Below, in pieces: positions 197-62,721 of a stretch of DNA of 64,000 bases (position 1 is the first letter of the stretch; every line of letters starts with the position of its first letter). A model generated the notes under the pieces. It had not been told where the DNA came from and did no database searches. It saw only the letters and a list, made by a program, of their open reading frames with translations. Where the stretch lies: the NCBI GenBank assembly GCA_944548615.1, contig OX155980.1, positions 36,400,381-36,464,380 of the forward strand. Direction: 5' to 3'. Made by a program: the position numbers and the translations under genes. The stretch comes from Micropterix aruncella. Taxonomy: Eukaryota; Arthropoda; Insecta; Lepidoptera; Micropterigidae.

Positions 197-603
197 TCAC
201 GACGACTGTGTAAAGAAAAGTGAAAATGCTGAAAACGCGGTTTTCGCGACTGAAATAGTGCAAGCGGATAAAGTGACTATTCTGGTGAATCGTTTTAAAT
301 CGCCTGGAATAATTCAACTGAATTAGTGCGATTTTAGATAAACGGACAAAAACAAAAGTGTCATTTCGTTTTGTGCGGTATTTTTTTAGTGGGTGCAGCG
401 ATTACTTTTGAGGTTAGAATCAGCAATTTTTCTGTCTGAAAAACTGTGGTGCGTCGATAGCGGTTTTTTGTGCGTGATTTCATCATCGCGTGGTACAAGG
501 AAAACGTTTTTCTCAACGCGCAGTTTTCCGGAGTTTTTTTTGGATTGAAATTGAAAAGTTTTTTTCGGAAAATTTCAAATCCGGCAATTCGAAAACAGAA
601 GAA
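197..603 (+). other. Copia 5' leader
   Basis: About 400 bases between the primer site and the gag-pol start. It is T-rich and purine-rich without a long frame of its own. An in-frame ATG equivalent lies upstream at 490, but the first residues from there do not look like gag, so I take 604 as the start. Confidence 0.6.
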
Positions 604-3600
604 ATGGAAGGTGATCGAATAAATATCGAAAAATTAGAAGGTGTCGCTGAGTCTTGCAATTGGCTGACATGGAAATTCCAAATGCGTCAAATTCTGGAGG
701 ACAATGCATTATTCGATATTGTCGATGGAGCCGAAGAGAAGCCAACGGCTGCAGAGCCGGACTATGCAACAAAAATCGTCATTTGGAAGAAGAAAGACGC
801 CAAATCGAGACGAATCATTTCGACAGCATGCAGAAGGCAGGCGGTAATGCAAATTATGACCTGTGCGACAGCAAACGAGATGTGGGAAATGCTCAGAGGA
901 ACCTATGAGCATACATCGAAGGCAAACACACTACTTTTACAACAAAAGTATTACAGTTATGCGAAGAAGGCAGGAGATGATATTGCGACGTTCTTATCGA
1001 AATTAATGGAAATTGTGCAACAGCTGCGAGATCAAAAGGAGACCATATCCGATTCCATGGTAATTTCGAAAATTTTAATAACGTTACCTGCTGAATTCAA
1101 TCATTTTCACAGTGCATGGGAATCTGCAAGTTCGGAAAGTCAAACTTTGACAAATCTGCGAGCGCGATTAATGGCAGAAGAGCTTCGCCTGAAATCGCAG
1201 GGACAAGTCGAAGAGGTGGAAGCGCTGATAGCTAAGCGAACTTTTCCCAAGAAAACCTACAACATCAAAAGGGGAAATTCGTCGAACAGCAACAACAAAT
1301 TGACGAATAAAAGCGACAAACCGAAAGGCAAGTGCTTTAAGTGCGGAAAAGGAGGTCATTGGAAGCGGGACTGCCCAGAGAAGAAGCATAGCTCTGACGA
1401 GAAACGAGAAGATGGCTCGGTCGACGCGTTCATTTGTCACTCAACGACGAGTGGAGACAAAGACACTTGGATATTAGATTCAGGGGCAACTGATCACATG
1501 AGTCACCGGCGCGATTGGTTCGAGAATTTCACTGAAATATCCGAACAAGTGAAGATAGGTAATGGCGATAGAATTGTGGCTCGAGGCAAAGGCGACATCA
1601 GCATTCACGCTTTCAATGGCAATGATTGGATCCGCAAGCGAGTCATGGGAGTTCTATTCGTACCGGATCTTCAGATGAATTTATTTTCATCAGGAAAGGT
1701 GACAGATCATGGACATCAGCTGAGCATGGACAACAAACGTTGCGAACTGCTGAAAAACGGAAACGTAGTTGCAGTGGGAGTTCGTAGAAACGGTTTGTTC
1801 CAGATGCTATTCAAGGTGAATCAGATTTCACGAATCGAGCCTACAGCAAACGTAGTAATAAAGAAGAGATCGCTTTGTTCGTGGCACGAGCGACTTGGAC
1901 ATCAAAACGTCATACATGTGAAGAAGTTTCTGCAGACTCGAAATATTGAATTCATCAATGAAGATTTCACATGTGAAGCATGCGTACTTGGAAAACACCA
2001 TCGAGGTAGCTTCAAGAATCGTGAGGAGAAGTCGAAAGCGTGTGGCGAAGTCATTCATACTGACGTGTGCGGACCATTCCAAGAAAATTCGATAGGTGGC
2101 GCCAAGTATTTCTTACTATTGAAAGATGATTACTCACATTTTCGTTTTGTCTACTTCATGAAACAAAAGTCAGAAGTAGCAAGCATCATCAAGAAGTGTG
2201 TGAAGCTGATTCAGAGGACATATGGACACAAAATTCGCATTCTCAGATCCGACAACGGCACAGAGTTCGTCAACGGAAAATTGAAAGCATTTTTCGAGGA
2301 AGTTGGTATTCATCACCAGCGAACTGTGCCATACACGCCTGAGCAAAACGGCTGTGCGGAACGGGAGATGCGAACAATCGTCGAATCAGCGAGAACGATG
2401 CTTCAGTCGAAGCAAATGGAAAAGAAGTTTTGGGCCGAGGCAGTAAATTCAGCAGTTCATGTGCTGAATAGATCTGGAACGAGCACAGTCGCGGACAAAT
2501 CACCGTATGAATTGTGGCACAACAAGGAAGCGAAGGTCGATCATCTGCGAATTTTCGGCTCGGAAGTGTTCATTCACGTTCCAAAGGAAAAACGGCAGAA
2601 GTTGGATCCAAAGGCAGAAAAATGTATGTTCGTTGGTTACGACAACCATTCGAAGGGATATCGAGTTTGGAATCCGAAAACAGGCAAAATCGAAATCTCA
2701 CGAGACGTCGTATTTTTGTTGGAGGAATCCATGGCCACACTGGACATCGGAGCTGAAGAAAAAACTATTGAGAGCACGGGCGATACAAACGCAAATAAAG
2801 ATGATGTAAATGATGAGGATGTAGAGGAACTCTTTACTCCAGAGGAACGCGAGGAACGTGGTGCGATATGCGACCTTGACAACAGAAATGTCATAAATCG
2901 GCATTTGCGCGATCGAAACACAATTACAGCAGCGAAGCGTTTGACATATTTCGCATCGGGACATCATTCGGCAATGTTAGCAGTCACCGAAGAGCCAAGA
3001 ACTTTTGAAGAGGCGATTAAATCGAGTGACCCCCGACAGTGGAAACAGGCCATGAACGAGGAGTACGATTCACTCATTAAAAATCGTACGTGGACTTTGG
3101 TTAAGGCACCAGTTGATCAAAGAGTTATAGATAATCGATGGGTCTATAAAGTCAAGCAGAATCCAGACGGAAGCATTGATCGCTACAAGGCGCGATTGGT
3201 AGTGCGGGGATTTACGCAGCAATATGGCATCGATTACCACGAAACTTTCAGCCCGGTGGTAAAGTTCACATCTATCAGAGCAATCCCGGCGTTGGCGACA
3301 TCGAAGAAAATGAAGTTGAAGCAGTTTGACATCAAGACGGCATTTCTAAATGGAGATTTAGAGGAGAATGTCTACATGAGCCAGCTGATCTTGATAGCCG
3401 AGCCAGCTATCAAAAAGCTTATATGGTTTGAAACAGGCATCACGCTGTTGGAACAAAAGGTTTACTTTGTTCATCAACAAATTTGGTTTCAAAGCAAGTG
3501 AATCGGATCCATGTGTTTTCGTTTTGCAACGGAGAAAACGGCATGCTAATTCTGGCAATTTACGTCGACGACGGATTGATTGCGGCGGAAAAGCAGGAAG

Positions 3601-4509
3601 CCATTGTTCCAGTCATCGAACACTTGAAAAAGGAATTCGAGATAAAAATATTTGAGCTGAAATGTTTTTTTGGGACTCGAAATTGATCAGCGATCTGACG
3701 GATCGATTCACATTCACCAACAGGGATATGCAAGAAAGATACTTGATCGTTTTAACATGACGAATTGCAATGCAGTGTCAACACCATTGGACATTTCTCA
3801 GAATCTTGGAGATTTTGAAACAGACGAAGAGACCGATTTTCCATATCGTGAAGCAGTTGGAAGTCTGATGTATTTGGCTGTCGCTACCAGGCCAGATATC
3901 AGCTTTGCAGTTGGAAGTGTCAGCAGATATTTGGAAAAACCAGCTGCAGCCCATGTGAATGCAGTAAAACGCATCTTAAAGTATGTCAAGGGCACGGTGG
4001 ACATGGGAATTCGCTTCGAGACAGAAAACGATTTACATTTTTGTGGATACAGCGATGCCGATTACGCCGGAGACGTCAGTACGCGAAGATCGACGTCAGG
4101 ATACGTTTTCATGTTCGGAGGAAGCGTTATCAGTTGGGGATCAGAACGACAAAAATCGGTTGCACTGTCTACAACAGAATCCGAATATATGGCAGCATCA
4201 CATGCCATAAAAGAATTGGTTTGGCTGAAAAATTTGTTGTGCGAGCTACAGCAATCGAAATTGGACGTGCCAATATTTTTCATGGACAACCAGAGCGCAA
4301 TTCGACTTGTGAAGAACCCGGAATTTCACAAGAGGACAAAGCACATCGACGTGCGATATCACTTCATCCGAGAGAAATTCGAAGACGGAATATTTGAGCT
4401 AAAATACGTTCAGACGGATGAGCAGACAGCTGATATAATGACAAAGGCATTATCAAGGCCAAAACATCAACATTTTTGTACTTTGATGAATGTCATTCCA
4501 AATAATTAA
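604..4509 (+). pseudogene. Copia gag-pol polyprotein, frameshifted
   Basis: The polyprotein of a copia element: capsid, protease, integrase, reverse transcriptase and RNase H. The chosen start is the ATG at 604 (context gaaATGG). Visible landmarks in order: gag; a CCHC zinc knuckle CFKCGKGGHWKRDC near 1333; protease motif DSGATDH near 1478; integrase HHCC region with HERLGHQN near 1885 and CEAC near 1975; integrase core with HTDVCGPF, RSDNGTEF and EQNGCAERE (2050-2360); RT beginning at RWVYKVKQNPDGS; YVDD near 3562; RNase H with SDADYAGD and STTESEYMA (4050-4200). The frame moves 1 to 2 to 3 to 1, with breaks at about 3380-3415, 3530 and 3663, the last in a T run. The C-terminal part ends at TAA 4507-4509. 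It cannot encode a full product as read. Confidence 0.93.
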
Positions 4510-4598: not shown

Positions 4599-4610
4599 AA
4601 AAAGTGGGAG
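4599..4610 (+). other. Copia polypurine tract
   Basis: The purine run aaaaagtgggag directly precedes the 3' LTR. It primes plus-strand synthesis in LTR elements, and its end defines the first LTR base. Confidence 0.8.
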
Positions 4611-4788
4611 TATTGAATATTATGTTTTTTCGTTGCAAGTCTGGCAACACTAGCACAGAACTGTCACAATAAAAAAATGTTTTGTAACCTCAAACTGAGT
4701 CGCTGTGTTTTTTCTCTCATCGCGTCCCTTTTTCATTTTTGCTAGTACTTTAATTCACGCGGAACTTCCTGACTGGAACAATTCAACA
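4611..4788 (+). repeat. Copia 3' LTR
   Basis: Second copy of the 178-bp LTR, beginning tattgaatattatg and ending attcaaca. It is followed by ttatctaaaa and then the start of a Helitron-like element only ten bases on. Confidence 0.9.
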
Positions 4789-14260: not shown

Positions 14261-17189
<2,929 letters not shown>

Positions 17190-17394
17190 CGTACCTCTAA
17201 CCAGTCGGGAGGCCGAAGAAATCTGACCGAAACTGGTAGTAAGTCTTGTACGCTCACCTCACGAGAGACAGAATGATCAATATCGTTAAAACTTCCTGAG
17301 GGTGAAGGATTCAAGTAACACCTCCAAGTATCCATCTTTACGCAATGTATTCGTCAGTCAAGTAGTTGTACTTGCATATGTAGCATGTTAGCCT

Positions 17395-17489: not shown

Positions 17490-20250
17490 CTTACCACGCA
17501 TTCACTTCCCCTTTGAAGCCCAAGAATTTGAAATGCGGATATCGCGGTTTTGGATATTTTTCTAGAAAGATGTTGATTATTTTTCTGGAGACCAAGATCT
17601 CTAAAGAGGTGAAACAGAGATTTGGCTGGCAGACCACTAGCACCAACTTTCACCTCGTGAAGGTAAACAGTGAAACCGTTCCGGGTGACGGCATTTCCGA
17701 GATCATGGTATTTATTTATGTAGTTTGTACTCGCGGACTTTTGGGATATTTGATTCCCAGGGAACAGTTGATTCTACAATAAGGACCATCTTCAGAGATA
17801 AAGTGTAAAGAGTTATATCTGGACGGAGGGCCATGCATCCGAGACTTTCAGGGAATGTATACTGCTTAGAGACCGAATCGACTTCCAGAATCCAATCTGA
17901 AGCTTTCTCGATTATTAAGAATGATTTTGTAGTGAAACGTCTTTTGCCTTTAAAGCCGTCCCGCACAAACTGTATTGGGGGTTTGGAGGGTAATGTCAGA
18001 CCCTTTTTGGCACGAGCCACTGAGGAGCAAGTGCAAATAACTGCAAGGATTTTGTCGTGGCGGTATCTGTACCGTCCTTGATCTAAGGCCACCTTGCAGC
18101 CAGCTGGAATATGTCTAACTGTGCAAGGAGTATTGCTACAAAGGGAACATTAACTATCCTCGGCATAGCTCCAACGAACAAGGATACTGAGGTCTGGAAA
18201 TGTATATTGAAAGGCGTTTAAATAAAATTTCAGAATCTCTGGCGTCATACACCATTATTTTCCATAGCATTGGAGGAGGTATGAAAAAGCCTCTGATTGT
18301 TGTCCAACCATTCTGGCATTGAAGTCAAAGAGCATGAACCATACTATTGCTGTCGCAATCTCCCCTCAAGAGAGATTTCTTCAAGTCCCCATCGCTCATG
18401 GTTTTACTGCCATATCCCAGACCATTGCCGTTCAGGCTGATTCCAGCAAGGAACTTTTTGTGAAAGTCTAAGCGGGCTTATAACTAGATCATTTAACTCA
18501 CTACGGCCACTTATTACTTACTTCGATATTGACGGATCCATGGAATTGGACAGAATCGGTTTTTCAGTTATTCTGGAGTTGGCGTAGAGCATAGAGGGCA
18601 GTTTTAAAGAGTGTGTTTTGATCTGAAGAGAGTCGAGGGGTCAGCTGGTTTAGCTAAGGACAACCAGGATTTCAGGGTAGATGTCACCAGTGCATCCAGA
18701 AGGGACATTTGGGTTTTGGTGGAATCGTAATATGACCATGGAATTGGCCATGACAAATGGAATGTTAGATAATTGCCATAGATCCAAGCCTTTCGTGGGC
18801 CAGAAATTGACAGAATTTCTAGTTTTGACAGGCAACGATTGAAATGCTCTATAACATGATCGCCAAAGAGGTATTTTCCCTGATGGGTGATTTTCCGGCA
18901 AAGGAATTTGAAATGGTTATTTGGGTCTATAATGGAGATATCAAAGCTCTTATAGACCAATTTGGGGTCTTAGTAAATGATTTTTTTGTGCCTATGTGGG
19001 CGAGTCCAAGCAAACACATTTGGAGGGCTTCACTTTTATGCAACCTGACCTGTCGCTGAACAGCCCCAATTTCTATAATAGCAGGGAAAGCTGCCTGGCG
19101 CTTCTAGTGATAAAAGTTAGGTCTTCGGCAAAAGCGAGGTACGACGAAGTATAAAGGTCGCCTGTTTTGAAACGGTAACGCCACTTCTTGTCTGACTGGG
19201 ACAGGCTTTCTAGCAGGATGTTGAAAACGGCATTAAATATCTTCGGAGAGAGGAAAAAGCCCTGAAATAGTCTAATTGAATATCATATAGAGCGGGTAAT
19301 CCATTATTGTGTTTTGAAATGGAACGTCAGGCAGTTGTAGTAGGAGGTCACAATGGCACGGACCACTGGAAGTTGTACCAGCGGAGTGCTAAGTGGAGGA
19401 AACTGTATCGGACTGCCCAAAAGCGTTCTCGTGGTCGAGCCTGCATACGTTAATTTGGCGTTCGTGCAGTCTCGCATCCTTCATGGCAGCAGCCAGGAGA
19501 GAATCGAGCTCAAGGCAGCCTGAGACGCCACGCGTGAAGCCTTTTTGCACTGATACTCCAAGGTACTCATTCCAGTGCATGAATTCGTTCATTCTCGTGT
19601 GGAATATGTCAAAAAAGATTTTTGTCACAGTATCTGTTAGAGCAATGGGCTGAGCGTCCGTTGGTCCGGTGCAAACCGGGAGTTCTTAATTAAGATGACT
19701 GTCACTCGGCCGAAATTCTGTGGGACTACACCGCTATTCCATATATGCCGGAAGATGAATCTTAAATATTGCAGAAGGCAGGGGCATTGTTGTACACCAA
19801 GTAAGGAATACCTTTGGGACCCGGAGTAGAGCCTGATGGCTTTCTCTTTACCTGAGTGTTTATCTCTTCTAGATATGGAGATTGAGAGGCGAAAGCTACA
19901 GTAGGCAGACGAGGAGGTGTAATACTCGGAGGAAGGCTGTACGGATGGAGCCGCAATTGCTACTCATAAGTGGTCAAAAAGTATTCCGTGGGTATTTCCT
20001 TCGAGATTTGGATTTTGCCATTGGCGGCAAACAACACTTTTTTGCTTTAGTTAAAACGGTTTTTGTCAAACCGGGCTTTCTCTTTGGATTTGAGAAACGC
20101 TGCCTTGCGCCTGTCGTTTAGCGTTGCTACGCTCTGTATAAGTTTGAATATAGAGCGGTAAGCGCGCGAAAAGTTATGGCAGAGGGCTTTAGCCCTTCAC
20201 GTAGCTGGCGACGAAGTAGCCGCTTTAGCCTACGGAGCTTTAAATTCATT
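17490..20250 (-). pseudogene. Degenerate R2-like non-LTR retrotransposon
   Basis: Read on the minus strand from 20250 downwards, the conceptual protein runs: basic N-terminal stretch; RT entry (RKPSGSTPGPKGIP, ~19850); RPISL-like region and TVTKIFFDIFHTRMNEFM (~19630); AAMKDARLHERQINVC and NAFG (~19480); QG-FLSPKIFNAVFNILLES (~19270); LAFAEDLTFIT (~19130), where the usual FADD reads FAED; a connection and thumb region (18960-18600) with ISGPRKAW and LKSWLSLAKPADPSTL; then the C-terminal domain with LDQGRYRYRHDKILAVI (~18080), ALRPDITLY and ELTVPWESN (~17800), ending near WLQRGSE (~17500). RPD...E-L-T recalls the PD-(D/E)xK core of a restriction-like endonuclease; that is inference. Frameshifts and stops are frequent. 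The clade name R2-like is tentative. Confidence 0.75.
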
Positions 20251-31845: not shown

Positions 31846-50215
<18,370 letters not shown>

Positions 50216-50227
50216 AAATCGTACTCG

Positions 50228-51185
50228 GTAAGTTATTTTTGGTAGGTAACTTTAAACCCCTCTGACTCCTCTTATATTACACTAGCTGTAGATCCACCTA
50301 GATATTCAGCCCTAAGAGACAGGCTCCCGACTCTCATTTGCTTTAAGCCCTCAAAAAAACTGTTAGATATGAAAACTATGTTGTATATCTCATAAACCAC
50401 TGGACCGATGTTGATCTAAACATGTATAGATAGGAATACTCATGCTGTACTTAGAAGAAAAAAACCGCCTAAAATCGGTCTATTACTTTTATAGATCTTA
50501 GCGGTATCACACATAGAAGACAGATAAGCCACCAATTTATTTCGATGGCATTCAATTCAGCGTGTCTTAATTAGTAATCAATCACTCAAACCCAACAATC
50601 AACAGAAGTTGCATTTTAAAATATAAATAAAAAACAACCTTCTTCAACAATTCGATGGCTTGCAGAGGGTCACAAATATTATTGTCACGCATTTTATATT
50701 AGTGTGCATAATATGCATAATATATCTTTTAACGAGTCAACGATTTAATCGAATTTATTATAAAAAAATATACCTCAGCCTCCCAAAATTATAATACATA
50801 TTATTACTAACTTGTTTAACTAAACTTTACAAAACTTATACACCTAAATTCTGGAGAAAAACCCCTAAAACTTTAATATTATATGCTTCGATCAGTCACA
50901 ATATTATGATTACCCTGCAATTTCACTGCTATCAACGACACTTAAGCTCCTATATCAATTACGGGCGCTAGCTTAGTTAATGACTTAGAACTGTTTTCTC
51001 CACTTTACAATTAGCCCTCGGGATATGGAGGCAAACTGATATAAATAAAATACAAACGGAGCTGCCATGGAATTCACCGACCGAAGTCGGGCCCATCATA
51101 GAGTGTTATTACAGTTCTGGGGGGTGAGCAGTGGATTCCGGACAAACGACCGGCTGTGGTAGGTTTAGGACAGCTGTCTTGCTAC
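50228..51185. other. Putative last LRR intron, nothing recognised at its start
   Basis: AT-rich. An AATAAA at 50626-50631 could serve a transcript that ends without splicing to 56074. Confidence 0.5.
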
Positions 51186-52500
51186 ATGTGAGCGTTCACC
51201 TTACCACCCATTCACTCCCCCTTCGAAGCCATAGAATTTGAGATGCAGAAATCGTGGTTTTAGATAATTTTTCTAAGAAGGAGTTGATTATTTTCCTGGA
51301 GAGACCAAGATCTTTAAAATGGTGAAACAGAGATTTAGCTGGCAGGCCACGAGCGCCAACTTCCACCGTGTGAAGGTGAACAGTGAAGCAGTTCCGGGTG
51401 ACGGCATTTGCGAAACCATGGTATTTATTTAATTTGTACTCGTGGTCTTTTGGGATATTTGATTCCCATGGAACAGTTAATTCCACGATAAAGACCATCT
51501 TCCGAGATAGAGAGTAAAGAGTTATATCTGGACGCAGGGCTGTGCATCCGAGACTTTCAGGGAATTTATACTGCTTAGAGACCGAATCGATCTCCCGAAG
51601 CCAATCTGAAGCTTTATCGATTATTGAGAAAGGTTTTGTAGTGAAATGTTTTTTGCCTCTAGAGCCATCCCGCACAAACTGTATTGGGGGTTTGGAGGGT
51701 ATTGTCAAACCCTTATTGGAACGAAACACTGAGAGGCTAATTACCTCGCGAATAACAGCAAGGACTTTGTCGAGGCGGTAAGTGTACCGTCCTTGATCTA
51801 AGGCCACCTTTCAGCCAGCTAGAATATGTCTGGCTGTGCAAAGGGGGAATTGCACAGCCAGACAAGATGGTTTCAAAGAGGGCATGAAATATCTTCGGCA
51901 TAGCTCCAACGAGCGAGGTTACTGAGGTCTGGAAGCGTAAGCTGAAAGGCATTTAAATAAAATTTCGTCCAGTCATACAACATTACTTTCCAGTGCATTG
52001 GAGGAGAAATGCAAAAGTCTCCAATTGTTGTCCAATCATTCTGGCATTGAAGGCCAATAGCGTAAGCCATACTATTGCTGTCGTAATCTCCCCGCAAGAG
52101 AGACTTCTTCAAGTCCACATCGCTCATGGTTGTACTGCCATACCCCAGACCATTGCCGTTCTGGCTGATTCCAGCAAGGAACTTTTTGTGGAAGTCTACG
52201 CGGGCTTGTAGATCATTTGACTCAATACGGCCACTTATAACAGGCTTCGATATTACCGGATCCTTGGAATTGCTTAGAATCGAATTTTTGGTTATTCTGG
52301 CATTGGCGTAGAGCAGAGAGGGCAGTTTTAGAGCTAGCCCAAAATTGTATTTGGATCTGAAGAGAGTCGAGGGGTCAGCCGGTTTGGCTAATGACAACCA
52401 GGATTTTAAACTAGCTGTCGCCAGTGCATCCAGACGAGACAATTGGGTTTTGGTGAAATCGTAAATAAGAAAGGGCCATGAAAAATGTGACAAATAATTA
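51186..52500 (-). pseudogene. R2-like LINE 3' half, longest readable copy
   Basis: Two long minus frames (about 206 and 203 codons) cover the thumb or connection region (FSWPFLIYDFTKTQLSRLD, LKSWLSLAKPADPSTLF, LGLALKLPSLLYANARITK) and the C-terminal domain (LDQGRYTYRLDKVLAVI, TALRPDITLYSLSRKMVFI, ELTVPWESNIPK, VEVGARGLPAKSLFHHF), ending WLRRGSEWVV at 51196. Only one frameshift (near 51840, with a tctggctgtgc inverted repeat) is obvious, so this copy is younger than the one at 17.5 kb. The RT palm is missing: 5'-truncated. Confidence 0.8.
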
Positions 52501-52899
52501 GTCTAAATATACGTAGTATAAAAAAGAATTTCAATGAGCTATCAGCTACTCTTCATTAAATTGGTATTGAACTATTTACAGCTGCATGCTGGTTTCAAAG
52601 CTACTGCTCAACACAAAAAAAATACAATTACGATAGGTATCAAACAAAGAACAATATAAAACGAAACAACAGTTGTTTATAAGAAAGTCATTCAGCGCTA
52701 AATGTCAAGAAATTACATTTAACGACGCTGTCTAAAACAGTAATTAAAGAAACAGAAAATACTAGTGAGCCTAAAATAAAAGAACGCAACCGGAACAGAC
52801 TTCATCTGAAGCAAGGTGCTCAAACAGAAAGCGTGAGTATCTAGAGGTCTTTGGTGGGGCAATCCCTATTTGCACTGTTATGTCCCGTCTTCGAAGGTT
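52501..52899. other. Intron sequence, nothing recognised
   Basis: AT-rich with no recognised coding or repeat end. Confidence 0.45.
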
Positions 52900-53300
52900 G
52901 TGTGAAACATGAAATATAGTACTACAGGCCAATCAGTTTACTAACTATACTCTCAAAGAAATGGAAACTGTAATTAAGGATGCAGCAAAGAAAGAGGAAC
53001 TGAATATGCGATTGCTGAATTTACTAAGATAGTAGTTAATGCTCTTTACAATGGAGGAAAATGTAACGCCGAAGCATTTGATACTGTCAGCCACCCACTC
53101 CTTATTTTTAAATTAGAGCATTTGGGGGTAGGGGGTCTGGACTTGGACTGATACAGGGATTACTTGTCTGGGAGACGCCAAATAACAAATATATAATATT
53201 TGAGTGAAAAATCAGAGGAAAAAATTGGCATCCCCAGGGCCTACTTAAATGACTTTACAAACATGAAAGTAGATGGTAGTCTTCAGGGACAAAACAAGAA
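52900..53300 (+). pseudogene. Jockey-like LINE reverse transcriptase fragment
   Basis: Plus strand across frames: YRPISLLTILSKKWKL near 52925, then EAFDTVSHPLLIFKLEHLGV near 53074, GRRQITN near 53170, and a remnant of the G-x-P-x-x-YLNDF block near 53235. These are RT blocks of jockey-type LINEs in the right order, with stops and small indels; FADD is lost. Confidence 0.75.
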
Positions 53301-53754
53301 ACGCTGTAAAATCAAAATCTACTCTCGTTTAATATACACAAAACAAAATACATGGTATTACAAATCACCGATAGTTAACTAATAGACTGAATCTAATACT
53401 ATGAATGTATTAAAATCCATAACTATTTGCTATTACACAGTAACTGTAAATGCAATGCATTAGAGAGGTTGTCCACAATACCATACAAGGGACTATCTAT
53501 TGACGATAAACTAAAACGGACGATAAAAAAAAAAATGGGTAACTAATTGACCCATTTACACTACTAAGAACAGCACTATCAATAGATCTACTGAAGATAG
53601 TCACATTGTCCACTGATTTGTGTCAGTTGACCAAATCGAAGGAGGAACTCTGTTGCCGTGTTTTCCAAACGTAGCGCAGAAGTTCAAAAACCATAATTAG
53701 CTGACCGAAAGAGCCAATAAGCGGTGAAAAACAAATATTTCGATGACCTCAATG
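53301..53754. other. Intron sequence, nothing recognised
   Basis: AT-rich; could include the decayed 3' end of the LINE before it. Confidence 0.4.
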
Positions 53755-54155
53755 CCAGGGACAGTTGTTTGCCTTCAAGATACAATTATCAACCAGGATG
53801 AGGTAGTCAACTATCCCACAGGATTTTTTAATTCGCTGGGATTGCCTGGATTGCCACCTCACATTTGCAATAGAAATTAGGCTCAGTCATCATTATGCTG
53901 CGTAATATCAATCAACCTCGACAATCAACATCAATCAACAGATTTGCCATTTGATTTTAAACGGCTGCAATTCCCCGTGCGTCTGGCCTTTGCGATGACA
54001 AATCAATCAATCGTTTGCAGAATTAACTTGGAATTTCCGTATTTCGCGCATGGACAACTGTATGTCCCGTGTTCACGCGTCGGAAAGCCATCATTTTTGT
54101 TTATTTACGGGCCGGAAAACAAAACGAAAAACATAGTTTACCAGAATGTTTTGTG
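53755..54155 (+). pseudogene. Helitron helicase C-terminal relic
   Basis: Plus strand gives INQDEVVNYPTGFLNSLGLP near 53787 and, after internal deletions, DLPFDFKRLQFPVRLAFAMT near 53941 and FAHGQLYVPCSRVGKPS near 54044, then ENKTKNIVYQNVL. These match the C-terminal part of the PIF1-like helicase of Helitrons, including the last helicase motif (GQLYVACSRVG). The NKSQGQ motif after FAMT is lost. No Rep domain is present. Confidence 0.85.
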
Positions 54156-54279
54156 TTGAATGTTAACTGCATTTATATTTCACCATGTTAATTAATTATA
54201 CATTGAATTTATTTTAACTACAAACGACTTTCATTTAATAACCAAATGAAACTCAAACCGTACATGACTTAAGTAGCGG

Positions 54280-54690
54280 TGATACGGTGTCTACCGAATC
54301 TATCGCGGACCACAGCATCCTGTGCCCGACTTTTTCACCCGGGAACTGGTGGCCGAATGGTCGTTTCAAGAGCGGTTGTTTCAAGAGCGCTACAAGAGCA
54401 CATTACTGTTTCCAGACTCCCCCGACTGTTAGGCGGAATGCACGATCGATTGGCTGACGCCGCACAGTGCGCAAACCGTCCAGGAGCGCCTGAAGGTTGA
54501 CTCCTAGGGGAGACTGGCCCGCAGGCCAGTGTCCTACCCTGGCTCTCACTTCTGCGTGGAGGCCACCGGATGGGTGTCGACCCGTCCGTTTGACCGACCC
54601 AATACAACTGGGTCGTAGTGGCCAAACTGCAACAGGGCCCATTAGCTCCCATCCAGATGGGACAGTTGAGTTTTGGTGAAATCGTAAATA
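54280..54690 (-). repeat. GC-rich dispersed element, third copy
   Basis: Homologous to 23314-24010 and 35810-36160 (tctatcgcggacca, gattggctgacgccgc, gcccgcaggcc, gggcccattagctc). Minus-strand frame with LQALLDGLRTVRRQPI. It runs directly into R2-like fragments, raising the possibility that it is the 5' region of that LINE. Confidence 0.7.
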
Positions 54691-54910
54691 TCACCAAAAC
54701 CCAACTGTCTCGTCTGGATCCAGATGGGACAACTTGCGGTGTCAACTACAACGGGCGAGCCCGTCACCACAGGACGTTTTAACGATTTTAACGATCGACG
54801 TTTTAACGATCCAGATGGGACAGTTGGGTTTTGGTGAAATTGTAAATAAGGGCTTCTCATGACAAAAGTGAAGTTAGATAATTGTCATAGATCTAAGCCT
54901 TACGAGGGCC
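54691..54910 (-). repeat. R2-like LINE fragments, scrambled
   Basis: Three copies of catctggat/ttttggtgaaatcgtaaat sequence in both orientations (54651, 54690 inverted, 54808), corresponding to the DFTKTQLS-LD region of the copy at 52470. Then 54835-54910 matches further upstream sequence ending at ISGPRKA. gcggtgtcaactacaacggg at 54736 equals the start of the 23314 element. Confidence 0.65.
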
Positions 54911-55006
54911 AGAAATTAGCAAGGCATAAATCCAATCATAAAGTAAAAACCAATCAAGTCCAGTATCACAGCCAGAAAGTAAAAATGGCATCAAGGTAAC
55001 CCCACA

Positions 55007-55262
55007 CCCCAACGTAAAATGAAGGAATGAAATGGACCCAGGTGCCAAATTTTGCCTGCCACCCATACACTGAGTATACATCTCTGTCTTAATTATTTAC
55101 TGTGTCTCTTTAATCCATAAACTTCTTTAGACAACCCCAACGTAAAACAAAGGAATTTCGACGGCCCAGGTGCCAAATCTCATTTGACACCCGCACATTG
55201 ATCATCTATCTCTTATCTTACTTATTGGTTGTTTCTATTTCATCCATAAACTTATTTACCGC
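55007..55262. repeat. Two-unit tandem duplication, 128 bp
   Basis: ccccaacgtaaaa, ccaggtgccaaat, acacccgcaca-like and atccataaactt recur with a period of 128 bases, diverged by roughly a quarter. Confidence 0.8.
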
Positions 55263-56073
55263 TTTAGTTTCGAGATAAGAAAAACGTACTTACTCGGTAT
55301 TACTCACTACAGTTATTTTTACTATTAATAGTTGATATTGATATACAACCTCCATCCCAAAAAAACGGACTGATTTAAAATAGATGATTCTAGTGGCGCC
55401 ACCTATTGTTGGGAATATGCATTGGAAAGCTACATCCTTGAGTGACGTCATGTCAAAGTTTCATTGAATTCATATGTAAATAAACAGAGTTATTGCGTCG
55501 AATGCGTTAGTATATTTTGCGACTCAATACATAAATGAATTTCGAAGAAAGAGCTGCGATCAAGTTTTGTTTTAAACTCGGTAAATCCGGAAGTGAAACG
55601 CACCATATGCTTTTAGATGTCCATTGCTGATTTTAGATGTCCTTTACTGCAACTTTTTAGAGAAGTTTCTTATGGCAAATAGCACTAAAGATTACAGTTT
55701 ATAGTACTGTTAATCTAAGGAAGTCAGTTTACCCACTAAAAATTCATATTATCACTGAGTGATAAAATAGTTCCGTTAGTTGTGGGAATAGCTCTGTCAT
55801 ATACTGCATTACGTTGAGTGGAAGGAATAAACATAAACTAAAATTTGTGAACTGAATGATTGTAAAACAAAAAAAATAAATAAAGTTATAACAAGTAAAT
55901 GTAATGTTGCTAATTTACTGATTTCAAAATTACCTAAATTAATAATATTTAATATAAATGTGTCAAGATCTATCAAACCCCATAATCATAGCTAAACCAT
56001 TTCCGACGTAAAGCCAACTTTATTATGTTTATTTAATTATTTATTTATTTAATAATCCCTATTTCAATTTCAG
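55263..56073. other. Intron sequence with a mariner N-terminal scrap
   Basis: At 55535-55630 an ATG frame encodes MNFEERAAIKFCFKLGKSGS and ETHHML, which follows the N-terminal helix-turn-helix start of Mos1-type mariner transposases. Nothing further of the transposase follows. The rest is AT-rich. Confidence 0.55.
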
Positions 56074-56211
56074 AATGGAGGACTAATTACTGAAAGGAGT
56101 CTAAGTAACCAATTCTACGATATAGAACCAAACGACCATCTAACTGCAGTAGAATTTCGAAAACGAATGAAGATGCGAATGCAAAATAATACCTACTTTA
56201 AGAAATATTAA
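56074..56211 (+). CDS. Probable last exon of the LRR gene, beyond the TAG
   Basis: Acceptor tttcaatttcag|AATGGA, then 45 open codons and TAA (56209-56211). The peptide has segments NGGLITERSLSNQFYDIEPN and HLTAVEFRKRMKMRMQNN. It is in phase 0, the phase left by the donor at 50228. If the TAG at 50213 is read through, absent in other alleles, or a base error, the protein gains KSYS plus 45 residues. Otherwise this is a spliced 3' UTR exon. ATTAAA lies at 56431. Confidence 0.6.
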   Translation, partial: NGGLITERSLSNQFYDIEPNDHLTAVEFRKRMKMRMQNNTYFKKY

Positions 56212-57521: not shown

Positions 57522-57740
57522 CTATGAGCTGTGTATAGGTAGTGGATGTGCTTCAGAATTTATAACGTATTTCTCCAGGTCGATGATATATCTGTCATCG
57601 CTGAATAGTAAGTAGCAATACTTGAGTGTTTCCGCTAGAAAAAATGACTCCATCATGTCCTTGGGCTTGGTGTTTTGTGCGTTACGGACGTTGCCCAAGG
57701 ATGTGTACCCATTCTTCACTTTGGCATAGCTTTCAATAGC
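57522..57740 (-). CDS. MAN1B1: Mannosidase terminal exon
   Basis: Acceptor tattttttgcag|GCTATT, stop TAG at 57522-57524. It encodes [20 protein letters not shown], then [20 protein letters not shown] and [15 protein letters not shown]. It contains substrate-binding acidic residues and the calcium-site position, which is Ser. Confidence 0.95.
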   Translation of the reverse strand, partial: AIESYAKVKNGYTSLGNVRNAQNTKPKDMMESFFLAETLKYCYLLFSDDRYIIDLEKYVINSEAHPLPIHSS

Positions 57741-60700
57741 CTGCAAAAAATAATACATCCATATATTATACGAAAGTGATTTGGCTTTAGTCAGGCATTT
57801 CTCTATTTGCCTTACTGGATTGTAACAAGGATGATATCATACAATTCGGATCGGTCTGAGGATGAAACTGATATATTTTCCATCTACATTGCTAAGTTAG
57901 GCTTATGCAAAAGATAATGTTTAAAGTTGGAAAAAAATAACTGTCAAATTTTAACCAGAGGTGTAGTTACACTGGCGATTGGCAGTGCTATCGTATACAT
58001 TCATAAAACAATTGTTAGAAAGAGAAGTGCTTTATAATAATACCTGGAATATTTTCCATCCGTGCTCTTGATATGTTGAGTTTCCCGTGAGCTGGTACAT
58101 ATACCACAAACTTTCTAAGTATTCGGGCCGTAATAAGCTGTGCGCATCATTAATTTTTACGTGCATGTCTACATCGCCGCCAGCCTAAAAACAAAATCAG
58201 GTTACTACATTATAATAATTTCGATAAAATAAGTATAATAACAAAACATTAATTCAAACTTAAAAACCATGAAATTCACCGAAAAAGCAAATCTAGGGGA
58301 GAATGTTATGAAACAAAAGTAAAAACTAGGTAGTAAACTGTTAGTAAAAACACTAGGTAGTAAAAACTGTTATGATTGAAATGACAGGTTTTGAACATCT
58401 CGTCAAAGGGCAACGAAATAAACCACAGATAAACGTAAGTTTTGTTGAATACATAACTTTTATGGCAACATAGTTTGATGCTCAGAATGAAGGGTATAAC
58501 AGAGCGATGATAAATTAAAACTCATATGAATTTGGGACTACCAAATACCAAAGGCTTTATTTTGGCATAGTAAACTGCTCTGGCCACTGCTGTTTTTTTA
58601 TATTAAATACACTATAAATAATATTTACCTGATTGAAATAAGTAATTTCCGGAGCTAAATAAGTAGGATGCATGGCATAAGTCTGTAGACATGTGCGCAT
58701 TAAGTCATGAGCCAATTGCATATGCCATTCAGGAAGACCATTTGCCACACCCAGGGCCAGAGTTCCAGGTAAATAACAAGTGAGATGGTCCATTTTTGGT
58801 TTTAGTTCCTGTAATAAAAAAATATATATCATTTTAGCCCTTATAAAGTCGAATTCCCTCCCCTCTGAAACTTAAGCTAATTTACTAAAAATATATGGTG
58901 TCTTCCTTCTTTTTTATTTTCTGAGTAAATCTTGTACCTTGATGAGTACATGCTGCGATACTTGTCAAGTGATATGTCTCGGGATATACAAGGAGTAATT
59001 GGAAAGTTTTAAGGCAGGAGCTGCTACTGCTTAATATGAGGAGATTAATGTTCCTACGTATGCGGAAAAAACTTGTTTTGTTCTTGAAATGTTCTAAAAA
59101 TATCACCCCGTTATGTTTGTTCAGTATAGAGTGATAGTCTGTTAAGTTAATGATCTCGGCGGTTTACTCGTCGGCTTTTGTCGGATACGTCGGATTCGGC
59201 TTACTCGTCGAACAATTCTTTCGAAAAGATATACAAATAGAAATAACCCAGGAAAAGTGACTCAAAACTCGAGTGTAACAAATAAAAAACTATGAATAGT
59301 TATAGCAGACGCAGGACAGAATATGTAATTCCTGAAATAATAAATAACATGTCTATCGAAATGAAACAATCATTAAATTAAAAAACATAAAATCGAAATT
59401 AAAAAATCATTTCTTATCAAAATTATACATTAAAAAAAACACAAAATAAAAACGAAATACTTAAATAAGGAGCAACCTTATAACTAACATAAAAAACGAA
59501 TTTACCGTGTGAATTTTGTAGCACTCGATATTTCGGCGACATTGCAGCCGCCGTTGTCCAGGGTAGACTGAAAGAGCTGTCAATCCGTTGTTACGCGGGT
59601 AGGCTGCATACCGCTGCCGCCACTGCGTAAATTAAAACGGTGGTGGGGTGGCGGGCTCGACGAGTGCGAATTTCGAAAGTCGGTCGTGCATACAACACTC
59701 ACTGTATCCTGTCTCACGTCCTTGCGTTCGGCTTTTGGCGGTAGGAACATTTTAAGAAGAGGCTTCCACGTAGAAGACAGTTAGTAACCGTCATCTCTAT
59801 TGAAGTTCGGGGTTCTTCTTATTTCAATGGCTTCCCGGATCATGCGAGGAAAGTAAAATTGTTCTTTGGATAGCACAATGGGATTTTGAAACTGCATCTA
59901 GTGGTTACTTCCGCTATCCAATATATGTTCGCAGATCGCCGATTTTTCTCGCTGAACGTTTTTAACAGCTTGATGTGTTCTATCAATCGAGTTGCTATGA
60001 GCCGTTTCGTTTGTCCAACGCTTGAAAATCGTTTTTATATCGAATTTATTCAGCATCTTACTTATTCGATCTGTCACGCCCTTGACATATGTTAAGAATG
60101 CTCTTGATCTGCTCGGATCAAGAGCAATCTTACCATACTGGAAGTAACCACTGAATGCAGTTTCAAAATCCCATTGTGCTATCCAAAGATCAATTCTACT
60201 TTCCTCGCATGAGGAAAGCCGGGAAGCCATTGAAATAAGAAGCCATTTTCTGGGAAACCATTGAAATAAGAAGAACCCCGAACTTCAATAGAGACGACGG
60301 TTACAAACTCTCTTCTACGTGGAACCCTCTTCTTAAAATGTTCCCACTGCCAAAAGCCGAACGCAAGGATGTGAGACAGGATACAGTGAGTGTTGTATGC
60401 GCTCGTCGCGCCCGCCACCCCACCACCGTTATAATTTACGCAGTGGCGGCAGCGGTATGCGGCCTACCCGCATAACAACGGATTGACAGCTCTTTCAGTC
60501 TACCCTGGCCAACGGCGGCTGCAACGTCGCCAAAACGTCAGGTGCTACAAAATTCACACAGTAAATTCGTTTTTTATCTTATTTATAATGTCAAATAACC
60601 GCAATAGTCTCCGATTTCATAAGGAGCAACCTGTATGTACGTGATTTGGCCAGCCATGATAGTAACAGGTGCGGCCGAAAAGTAATTCACCGCTCAACAC

Positions 60701-62721
60701 AGCTTAAAACAGCTGTGTAAATTGCAGGGTAGAACTAAATAAAATGTTATTATCTAAGTAATTAATGAATTTGATTGACTGTAAACCCGTTACGTATTCT
60801 AAGTGTAGAGGCTTTCTTTTATATCACAGGCAAACCAGACCTGGTTTTAGTGATATATCTAATGTATTCATTCTGTATTGTTTTTTTTTTGTATACATAA
60901 AAAAACATATTTTAGCTGGCTACAAGGCAGCCTTGGATCAAGGACCGACTTGCTGTTTGTTATCCGTGAGGTAATTAGCCTCTCAGTGGCTCCTGTCAAG
61001 GGTCTGATAGTACCCTCCAAAGCCCAAATGTGCGTAATGGCTCTTAAGACAGAAAACGATCCACTTCAAATCCTTTCTAAATAATAAAGCCTTAATTGGA
61101 GAATTATCATATTATTTTTACATGTGGTATTTATATTGGTACTCCTGTTTTCAAATGCGTAATTTTATTCATAAAAGTTATAAACAAGTGTTTTATTTTC
61201 ATGTGGCATAATTAATACTTATAAACATTGCCATCTGTTGGTGGGAAGATTGATACGGCTGAGTATTAAAGTCATTAAATGGAATCTTTGCTCATATATG
61301 CAGGGTTACGAGGGCGGGTCAATAAATCCGTGACTTTTAGAATTTCCCGCCTCTGAACTGAAAAGGCAACACTGCTCCTGACAACAGGCAACTGTCAGTT
61401 GACTCCTGTCAAAATGTGAACAAGCTGCGTCATTTAGTGTGTGTATGACAGCCATTGATAGCAGACTACTGCATGTTTTGAGAAGAAAAAGGAAAAAAAT
61501 AATTGCGTGTGCTCATTAAGCATTATTTTTGGCGGAAAAAAACCATCACTCAAACCAAAGCTAAACTCGATAAATACTATGGGACTCTGCACCGTCAATT
61601 TTAATGGTAAAGAAGTGGTTTACTAAATTTTGTTGTGGTCTCTACACCCGAAACAATTGAAAAAAGTTACGATATGGTGTTGGCCGATCTGAGATTAAAA
61701 GTCAGAGAAATTGTGGAAGCCATAGGCATCTCACATAGCTCAGTGGTTTCCATTTTGAATGATCACTTGGGTATGAAAAAGCTTTCCGAAAAATGAGTGC
61801 CGCGTTTGCTCACAATCGACCACAAATGCAATTGTGTGACAACTTCGCAGGAGTGTTTGGCGTTGTTGAACCACAATATGGATGAGTATTTGCGATGTTT
61901 CGTAACCGTGGACGAAACTTGGATCCACCACAACAGACCAGAGACCAAACAGCAGTCAAAACAGTGGGTTTCTTTGGGTGAATCGGCGCCAAAAAAGGCC
62001 AAGGTGGGTTTGTCAATCAATAAAGTCATGGCGACCGTTTTTTGGGATGCATGCGGTATAATCTATATTGACTACCTTCAAAAGGATAAAACAATCAATG
62101 GCGAATATTATGCCAACTTATTGGATCGATTTATTGAGGATTTATGCCATGGAAACTGCACACGTAAGGCAGTTTCCATGGCATAAATCCATGAATTGGG
62201 CTACGAATTGCTCCCACATCCGCTCTATCCTCTGGATTTAGCTAGTGACTATTTCTTGTTCACAAACCTGAAGAAATGGCTCGGCGGAAAGAGAAAAACT
62301 CCAACGATGAAATCATCTTACAAACAAATACCCATTTTGATGACCTCGACAAATCTTATTTTTTGGAAGGGATAAAAAAATTGGAGAAACGTTGGACAAA
62401 GTGTATAGAACTCAAAGGAGATTATGTTGAAAAATAAAATATTTTTTATCCAAAAACCTGTGTTTCATTCAAAAAGTCACGGACTTATTGACCCACTCTT
62501 GTATTTTTTAACATTTTCGGATTAGGAACACATGGAAAAAGCATTGGGTTCCAAACATTTCAGCAGGGAAGCCACTACTACTTTAAATATACAATTTTAA
62601 AAAAGTAATTACCTTACTGCCCGACACCAGTTCGCCAATAAAAACATATTGATTAGGAGAAGTCTGCGCCAATAATAATTTTCTTATACCTTCGATAGCA
62701 GCTAGGTAATCTTCGAGAAGA
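57522..62721 (-). CDS. MAN1B1: ER alpha-1,2-mannosidase (GH47, MAN1B1-like), 3' part
   Basis: Four exons on the minus strand: 62721-62613, 58808-58629, 58184-58044 and 57740-57522, about 215 codons, with a 5' half beyond 64000. The product removes a mannose from Man9GlcNAc2 in the ER or early Golgi and tags misfolded glycoproteins. The exons align in order with the C-terminal half of human MAN1B1: [17 protein letters not shown] ... [30 protein letters not shown] with MRTCLQ (the conserved Cys pair); [18 protein letters not shown], holding the catalytic RPE Glu; and [20 protein letters not shown] with the end NSEAHPLPI. The [11 protein letters not shown] and MDHL context separates it from EDEM and Golgi MAN1A types. 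Phases: a leading T, then 0/0/0. The usual NTEAH is NSEAH here. Confidence 0.93.
57741..58043. other. Mannosidase intron
   Basis: 303-bp intron, no other feature. Confidence 0.8.
58044..58184 (-). CDS. MAN1B1: Mannosidase exon (too short for ORF calling)
   Basis: Acceptor tgtttttag|GCTGGC and donor TTCCAG|gtatta. 47 codons: [20 protein letters not shown] then [20 protein letters not shown]. The RPE motif carries the catalytic glutamate of GH47. Contains one Asn-Ser-Thr sequon. Confidence 0.93.
58185..58628. other. Mannosidase intron
   Basis: 444-bp intron with a short tandem (aggtagtaaa, about 58327-58370) and no other feature. Confidence 0.8.
58629..58808 (-). CDS. MAN1B1: Mannosidase exon
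   Basis: Acceptor tttattacag|GAACTA and donor AATCAG|gtaaat. 60 codons, phase 0 both sides: [51 protein letters not shown]. The two cysteines correspond to the disulfide of class I mannosidases. Confidence 0.95.
58809..59478. other. Start of the 3.8-kb mannosidase intron
   Basis: AT-rich; a tcgtcggcttttgtcggata-like repeat near 59170-59205. No coding signal. Confidence 0.6.
59479..60618. mobile_element. Head-to-head Penelope-like pair with 14-bp target duplication
   Basis: A minus-oriented copy (59479-60139) meets a shorter plus-oriented copy (60140-60618). ataaggagcaacct occurs at 59465-59478 and 60619-60632, flanking the pair. The minus copy encodes [18 protein letters not shown] and IKTIFKR, then [15 protein letters not shown], which match the C-terminal RT-to-GIY-YIG linker and endonuclease region of Penelope-like elements (F-L-P-Y-V-x-G-x-T-D-R-I; T-D-K-S-A-x-A-E-H). 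Both copies share the 3' part (ttcaaaatcccattgtgcta, caaaagccgaacgcaagga). The plus copy has a small internal duplication around gccattgaaataagaag. Confidence 0.8.
60619..60924. other. Intron sequence, nothing recognised
   Basis: Includes the right-hand target duplication, then AT-rich sequence. Confidence 0.5.
60925..61080 (+). pseudogene. R2-like LINE fragment (C-terminal domain start)
   Basis: Plus strand across frames: AALDQG then [13 protein letters not shown] and [10 protein letters not shown], matching LDQGRYTYRLDKVLAVIREV and KGLTIPSKPP of the copy at 51.7 kb. Only about 50 codons. Confidence 0.65.
61309..62501 (+). mobile_element. Mariner DNA transposon, defective
   Basis: Terminal inverted repeats of about 34 bp (cgagggcgggtcaataaatc, cgtgacttttagaa against caagagtgggtcaataagtc, cgtgactttttgaa) lie directly inside TA on both sides (61307 and 62502). 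The length of about 1193 bp is normal for mariner. It sits antisense in the mannosidase intron. Confidence 0.9.
61440..62440 (+). pseudogene. Mariner transposase, broken
   Basis: The longest frame has [20 protein letters not shown] (first catalytic Asp), [20 protein letters not shown] and [13 protein letters not shown]; the C-terminal [14 protein letters not shown] and [13 protein letters not shown] follow. The segment that should carry HQDNAP with the second Asp is absent and is replaced by a 22-bp perfect inverted repeat (62138-62190). Frameshifts and stops also occur in the N-terminal third, e.g. TGA near 61795. Confidence 0.9.
62613..62721 (-). CDS. MAN1B1: Mannosidase exon, most 5' one visible
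   Basis: Acceptor ttatttacag|T at 62722-62723, then CTTCTC..., donor AGTAAG|gtaatt. 36 codons after a leading [21 protein letters not shown] then [16 protein letters not shown]. It corresponds to the LLEDYVEAVEGV ... FVGEL part of human MAN1B1, so the first catalytic acid and the N-terminal membrane anchor lie outside the window. Confidence 0.93.

What the first reader, a model, noticed from the sequence alone, without database searches (positions are those of the whole stretch)
50213..56211. In-frame TAG followed by an in-phase coding exon in the LRR gene
Seen directly: the LRR frame reaches TAG at 50213, then four sense codons, then a strong donor (TCG|gtaagt, phase 0). At 56074 an acceptor opens a 45-codon frame in exactly phase 0, ending in TAA. 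The peptide looks like real protein, and the introns upstream all obey phase. The TAG is 12 bases from the junction, too close to trigger nonsense-mediated decay. Possible meanings: stop-codon readthrough giving a C-terminal extension (well documented in insects), a nonsense allele in the sequenced individual, a base error, or a spliced 3' UTR with a chance open frame.
Basis: partly seen in the sequence, partly recalled or inferred. Interest (0 to 1): 0.75.

Follow-up and report, generated by a model that had tools for sequence, protein, structure and literature searches.

The report
Ordinary stop codon of ltl gene
An insect gene for a leucine-rich-repeat protein (larval translucida) most likely ends at an ordinary stop codon, and the open stretch found about 6,000 bases further on looks like chance rather than a hidden extra piece of the protein.

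Summary
The letters are as described: TAG at 50213-50215, a strong donor (TCG|gtaagt, 50228), an acceptor before 56074, and 45 phase-0 codons ending in TAA. The gene is most likely an ortholog of insect larval translucida (ltl); its protein is sister to Lepidoptera in a quick tree (SH-aLRT 100), so the animal is probably a caddisfly (inference). The 45-codon frame is not more than chance: in 20 evenly spaced 10-kb stretches of the same genome, 126 of 240 overlapping six-kb segments hold an acceptor at least as strong that opens 45 or more codons in a fixed phase. Its codon and amino-acid scores lie within the non-coding range, though these tests are weak. No protein found carries the peptide. 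The one tail-matching exon found (P0121, unnamed contig) stays alignable to 6 codons before the TAG and its frame ends close by, so the protein probably ends near here. Best reading: TAG is the normal stop; the donor after it may open a 3'-UTR intron (one so strong lies within 30 nt of 67 of 4909 TAG triplets, 1.4%); the 45 codons are untranslated. Readthrough is not excluded without RNA or ribosome data, but nothing found favours it.

The parts
31846..32014 (+). ltl coding exon (LRRs), first one found in the window
   Evidence: homologous to P0001 residues 110-167, 50% identity; junctions and phase
41691..41897 (+). ltl coding exon (LRRs)
   Evidence: 52% identity to P0001
41980..42168 (+). 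ltl coding exon (LRRs)
   Evidence: 62% identity to P0001
45992..46222 (+). ltl coding exon (LRRs)
   Evidence: 75% identity to P0001; Pfam LRR_8 8e-13
47069..47290 (+). ltl coding exon (LRRs)
   Evidence: 73% identity to P0001
49378..49576 (+). ltl coding exon (last LRRs)
   Evidence: 72% identity to P0001
49725..50212 (+). last coding exon: GNPVLCD cap and proline-rich tail ending ..PDKRII
   Evidence: 38% identity to P0001 over the tail up to about PPITLPP; P0121 alignable up to EPPPDSV
50213..50215 (+). TAG, taken as the normal stop codon
   Evidence: direct; P0121 frame ends about the same place
50228..50233 (+). strong donor-like site gtaagt, 12 nt after the stop; possible start of a 3'-UTR intron
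   Evidence: score 4.81, highest of the gene's seven donors, next 4.70; such a donor near a TAG: 67 of 4909
56074..56211 (+). 45-codon open frame after an acceptor-like site; most likely untranslated
   Evidence: open-frame rate at chance; codon and amino-acid scores within the non-coding range; one match in the genome
50626..50631 (+). AATAAA, possible poly(A) signal if the donor is not used

Best explanation
The gene is an ortholog of larval translucida (ltl), and TAG 50213 is its ordinary stop codon. The strong donor 12 bases later may start a 3'-UTR intron, whose downstream exon may or may not be the one at 56074. If it is not used, the message can end after the AATAAA at 50626. The 45-codon frame 56074-56211 is an accidental open frame and is not translated. 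Shown: exon structure, homology, one match in the genome, chance level of the frame. Inferred: orthology in the strict sense (no reciprocal test was made), that the stop terminates efficiently, and whether the donor is used.
For: Homology: 895 proteins at E<=0.001 (120 listed), best E 2.8e-199; of the top 29 rows 26 are named and all 26 are Lepidoptera; three of the 26 (P0001, P0005, P0008) bear the name larval translucida or ltl, the rest other LRR names. Chance: 126 of 240 six-kb segments hold an equally strong acceptor opening 45 or more codons. Codon and amino-acid scores inside the non-coding range. The best BLAST match of the extension in the 120 listed homologs has E 0.68 and lies in the LRR part; the search confined to residues 530-618 found nothing at E<=10. 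P0121 keeps ..[25 protein letters not shown] and its frame ends about where the window's TAG lies. No unusual RNA fold after the stop.
Against: The donor is the best-scoring of the gene and unlikely so close to the stop by chance (1.4%), so a spliced downstream exon is plausible. The frame's GC by codon position (0.42, 0.29, 0.29) is mildly coding-like, and 81% of 1757 GC-matched controls score below it. The codon test is weak: ltl's own last two coding exons score -0.12 and -0.09, not far above the extension's -0.17. P0121's last residues (QGN, then stop) could be encoded by AAG|GTAACT, a donor; 7 of 69 other protein ends allow one as good. In the pairwise alignment that includes the extension, MAFFT put P0121's last seven residues against the end of the extension; I take this as an end effect.
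Confidence: 0.82

Rival explanations
1. Functional stop-codon readthrough (or A-to-I editing of UAG to a Trp codon) into a spliced exon gives ltl a 45-residue basic C-terminal extension.
For: Phase 0 is kept across a strong donor and a good acceptor. Abundant readthrough has been conjectured for insects and crustacea (PMC5100048, passages).
Against: Open frame at chance; codon and amino-acid scores in the non-coding range; peptide not found in any protein; the stop is TAG while known candidates prefer TGA and, less so, TAG (PMC5100048); no RNA structure.
Confidence: 0.06
2. Recent nonsense allele or fixed truncation: the extension was the normal C-terminus and TAG is a new stop.
For: Strong in-phase donor directly after the stop.
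Against: P0121's frame ends near the same place (caveats above); lepidopteran tails do not resemble the extension (mean score reached by 109 of 500 shuffles).
Confidence: 0.06
3. An alternative donor upstream of the TAG (50153, AAT|gtaaaa, phase 0) splices to 56074 and skips the stop.
For: It is in phase 0.
Against: Score -1.84, below every other donor of the gene (lowest -0.14); none of the 120 listed homologs ends like the extension.
Confidence: 0.03
4. Single-base assembly error at the TAG.
For: Cannot be excluded without reads.
Against: Not needed: P0121's frame ends near the same place.
Confidence: 0.03

Closest known systems
larval translucida (ltl; the link to Drosophila CG32372 is recalled) and its insect homologs
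   Same: LRR array, GNPVLCD cap and, with Lepidoptera, the ..[13 protein letters not shown] tail
   Different: After LPP the window has its own proline-rich end instead of the lepidopteran NVVVKWPDERR..HPLADHLRLRDLN end (17 lepidopteran rows)
Insect stop-codon readthrough genes (PMC5100048 and PMC3840789; passages seen)
   Same: An in-frame open stretch follows the stop, here only if a 5.8-kb intron is removed
   Different: No conservation signal available, TAG stop, no RNA structure, open frame at chance

Membership tests
larval translucida (ltl) orthologs | LRR array homologous along its length | tested here: met
   seven exons, 38-75% identity to P0001
larval translucida (ltl) orthologs | groups with lepidopteran ltl in a tree | tested here: met
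   (quick tree, 34 chosen rows): sister to 8 Lepidoptera, SH-aLRT 100; other LRR families were not in the tree
larval translucida (ltl) orthologs | signal peptide and N-terminal cysteine cap (about 110 residues) | tested here: inconclusive
   not found in the window with P0001 (output cut after P0001 and part of P0006) or in the 10 kb upstream; presumably further upstream
stop-codon readthrough gene | protein-type conservation of the extension in relatives | tested here: inconclusive
   no relative of the extension found; no caddisfly DNA to score
stop-codon readthrough gene | extension looks coding | tested here: inconclusive
   36% of 8453 controls score as well (32% of 3835 plus-strand ones, 19% of 1757 GC-matched); another frame of the same DNA scores higher (0.044 against -0.174); 38% of 5899 controls, yet the amino-acid score also lies within ltl's own range. 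Small training set, low power
stop-codon readthrough gene | RNA structure after the stop (present in about 10% of Drosophila candidates, PMC5100048) | tested here: not met
   z 0.21 unspliced, 0.46 spliced
stop-codon readthrough gene | translation shown by ribosome profiling or peptides | not testable with these tools
   no such data

The most novel reading that the evidence does not exclude
Caddisfly ltl makes a second, C-terminally extended form by reading (or editing) UAG across a spliced exon, adding a basic tail (..AVEFRKRMKMRMQNNTYFKKY) that might change how this secreted BMP regulator binds heparan-sulphate proteoglycans.
Probability: 0.06. Interest if true: 0.55.

Novelty: not a real feature. 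Interest (0 to 1): 0.1.

Why it matters
It shows how easily an open frame after an acceptor arises by chance in AT-rich insect DNA: about half of the six-kb segments tested offer one as good (126 of 240). If the extension were real it would be a regulated second form of a BMP feedback regulator, but nothing here supports that.

Tried and rejected
The extension does not look like a copy of the lepidopteran tail: its mean local score against 29 lepidopteran-type ends (picked by pattern from rows P0001-P0039) was reached by 109 of 500 shuffles, the maximum by 35% of them; its best score over the ends of the 120 listed proteins was reached by 197 of 200 shuffles. Two lepidopteran tail peptides found no convincing second place in the window (best E 0.53). 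The extension is not a repeat copy: one match in the 1.08-Gb genome, though that tool skips very common words. RNA folding gave nothing. Codon usage was trained only on the 568 ltl codons, because the genome search that was to supply more genes did not complete. Donor and acceptor weights and average amino-acid frequencies are recalled, not taken from a call. The paper searches (in only 15 of 17 and 10 of 22 papers were listed) showed no paper on ltl readthrough by title or start of abstract; the held main text of PMC3840789 holds neither 'ltl' nor 'larval translucida'. Supplementary lists of readthrough genes were not readable here, so whether Drosophila ltl is on one is unknown.

Full report
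What is there. Seven coding exons from 31846 to 50227 join in phase; the frame meets TAG at 50213, and TCG|gtaagt follows 12 bases later. At 56074 an acceptor-like site opens 45 codons in phase 0.

What the gene is. The joined protein finds 895 proteins at E<=0.001, of which 120 are listed; only the 7985 candidates sharing most words were scored. Of the first 29 rows 26 are named, all 26 Lepidoptera, and three are unnamed contigs; identity is 53-63%. Three of the 26 (P0001, P0005, P0008) bear the name larval translucida or ltl; the others carry various LRR names, so the label rests on a few names and on similarity, without a reciprocal test. In a quick tree of 34 chosen rows the window is sister to the eight Lepidoptera used (SH-aLRT 100). 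No caddisfly was in the tree; that the animal is a caddisfly is an inference from this position. In Drosophila, Ltl is a secreted feedback regulator of BMP signalling that binds Dlp (PMC10847725, passages; that Dlp is a glypican is recalled). The first about 110 residues were not found in the window or in the next 10 kb upstream. The convergent gene downstream is a GH47 mannosidase on the minus strand, with its C-terminal exon at 57522-57836.

Is the tail before the TAG real? Yes. It aligns with Lepidoptera through ..[13 protein letters not shown]. The last protein search, with the tail plus extension, gave one hit among 146 candidates: P0121, a 141-residue frame on an 1121-base unnamed contig, E 1.7e-3, 35% identity over 55% of the query. 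It shares [18 protein letters not shown] and then EPAPDTV against the window's EPPPDSV; after that the window has six codons before the TAG and P0121 eight before its end. It argues that ltl in this lineage ends here. Two caveats. Its last residues, QGN and the stop, could be encoded as AAG|GTAACT, a donor-like site, so that its stop might be intronic; 7 of 69 distinct ends of the other proteins allow a donor as good. And in a pairwise alignment that includes the extension, its last seven residues were placed against the extension's end, which I read as an end effect of global alignment.

Is the extension more than chance? I scored acceptor-like sites with a simple weight matrix (recalled weights). 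In 20 evenly spaced 10-kb stretches of the same contig, both strands, genes and repeats not removed, 36 of 350 sites at least as strong as 56074 open 45 or more codons, and 126 of 240 overlapping six-kb segments hold one or more. In the rest of the window, with the copia element, TA repeats and exons taken out, it is 14 of 104 sites. Between 50288 and 57000 five sites are this strong, 56074 among them. Codon score, trained on the 568 ltl codons: 36% of 8453 overlapping stop-free controls reach it, 32% of 3835 on the plus strand, 19% of 1757 with similar GC; one of the other two frames of the same DNA scores higher. This test is weak, since ltl's own last two coding exons score only slightly better (-0.12 and -0.09 against -0.17). 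Amino-acid score: 38% of 5899 overlapping controls reach it; 11 of 12 ltl windows score higher, but the lowest does not. Third-position GC is 0.29, against 0.53 in the ltl coding exons. No Pfam family matches it at E<=1. Among the 120 listed homologs its best BLAST match has E 0.68 and lies in the LRR part, and a search confined to residues 530-618 found 33 candidates and none at E<=10. So nothing sets the frame apart from chance.

Is the donor more than chance? Probably. It scores 4.81, the highest of the seven donors, the next being 4.70. Of 4909 TAG triplets in the control stretches, 67 have one this strong within 30 bases. A 3'-UTR intron starting just after the stop is plausible; 12 bases from the stop it would not be expected to trigger nonsense-mediated decay by the usual 50-55-nt rule (recalled). 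If the donor is not used, AATAAA at 50626 could end the message.

Readthrough signs. Known insect candidates prefer TGA and, less so, TAG, and about 10% of the Drosophila ones have predicted RNA structures (PMC5100048, passages). Here the stop is TAG, and the downstream RNA folds no better than shuffled RNA, spliced or not. None of this excludes low readthrough; none of it favours it.

Verdict. The TAG is most likely the ordinary stop of this ltl gene, with a possible 3'-UTR intron after it. The 45-codon frame is most likely untranslated.

Noticed in passing
window 478-4509: Ty1/copia-type element: ORF 478-3501 (gag, integrase, start of reverse transcriptase) and ORF 3661-4509, with like short peptides near 1-150 and 4600-4750 that suggest long terminal repeats.
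   Followed up: partly
window 57522-57836 and 58557-58871, minus strand: Exons of a GH47 mannosidase, convergent with ltl.
   Followed up: partly
window 61797-62186: Transposase_1 (mariner-type) fragment, PF01359.
   Followed up: no
window 51196-52502 (-) and 17712-18149 (-): Minus-strand ORF remnants sharing a KVALDQGRY.. stretch, with a similar word near 60866; the two ORFs at 51196-52502 have no Pfam match. Perhaps an old mobile element lying inside the presumed ltl 3' intron.
   Followed up: no
window about 16685-17230 and 42210-42450: Long (TA)n-type arrays, seen as YIYIYI translations.
   Followed up: no
P0069-P0119, hymenopteran rows: The hymenopteran homologs in the list end in the same ..FAATLE, while the ends seen in other orders look different from it and from each other (by eye); the C-terminal tail of ltl seems to be rebuilt from order to order.
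   Followed up: no
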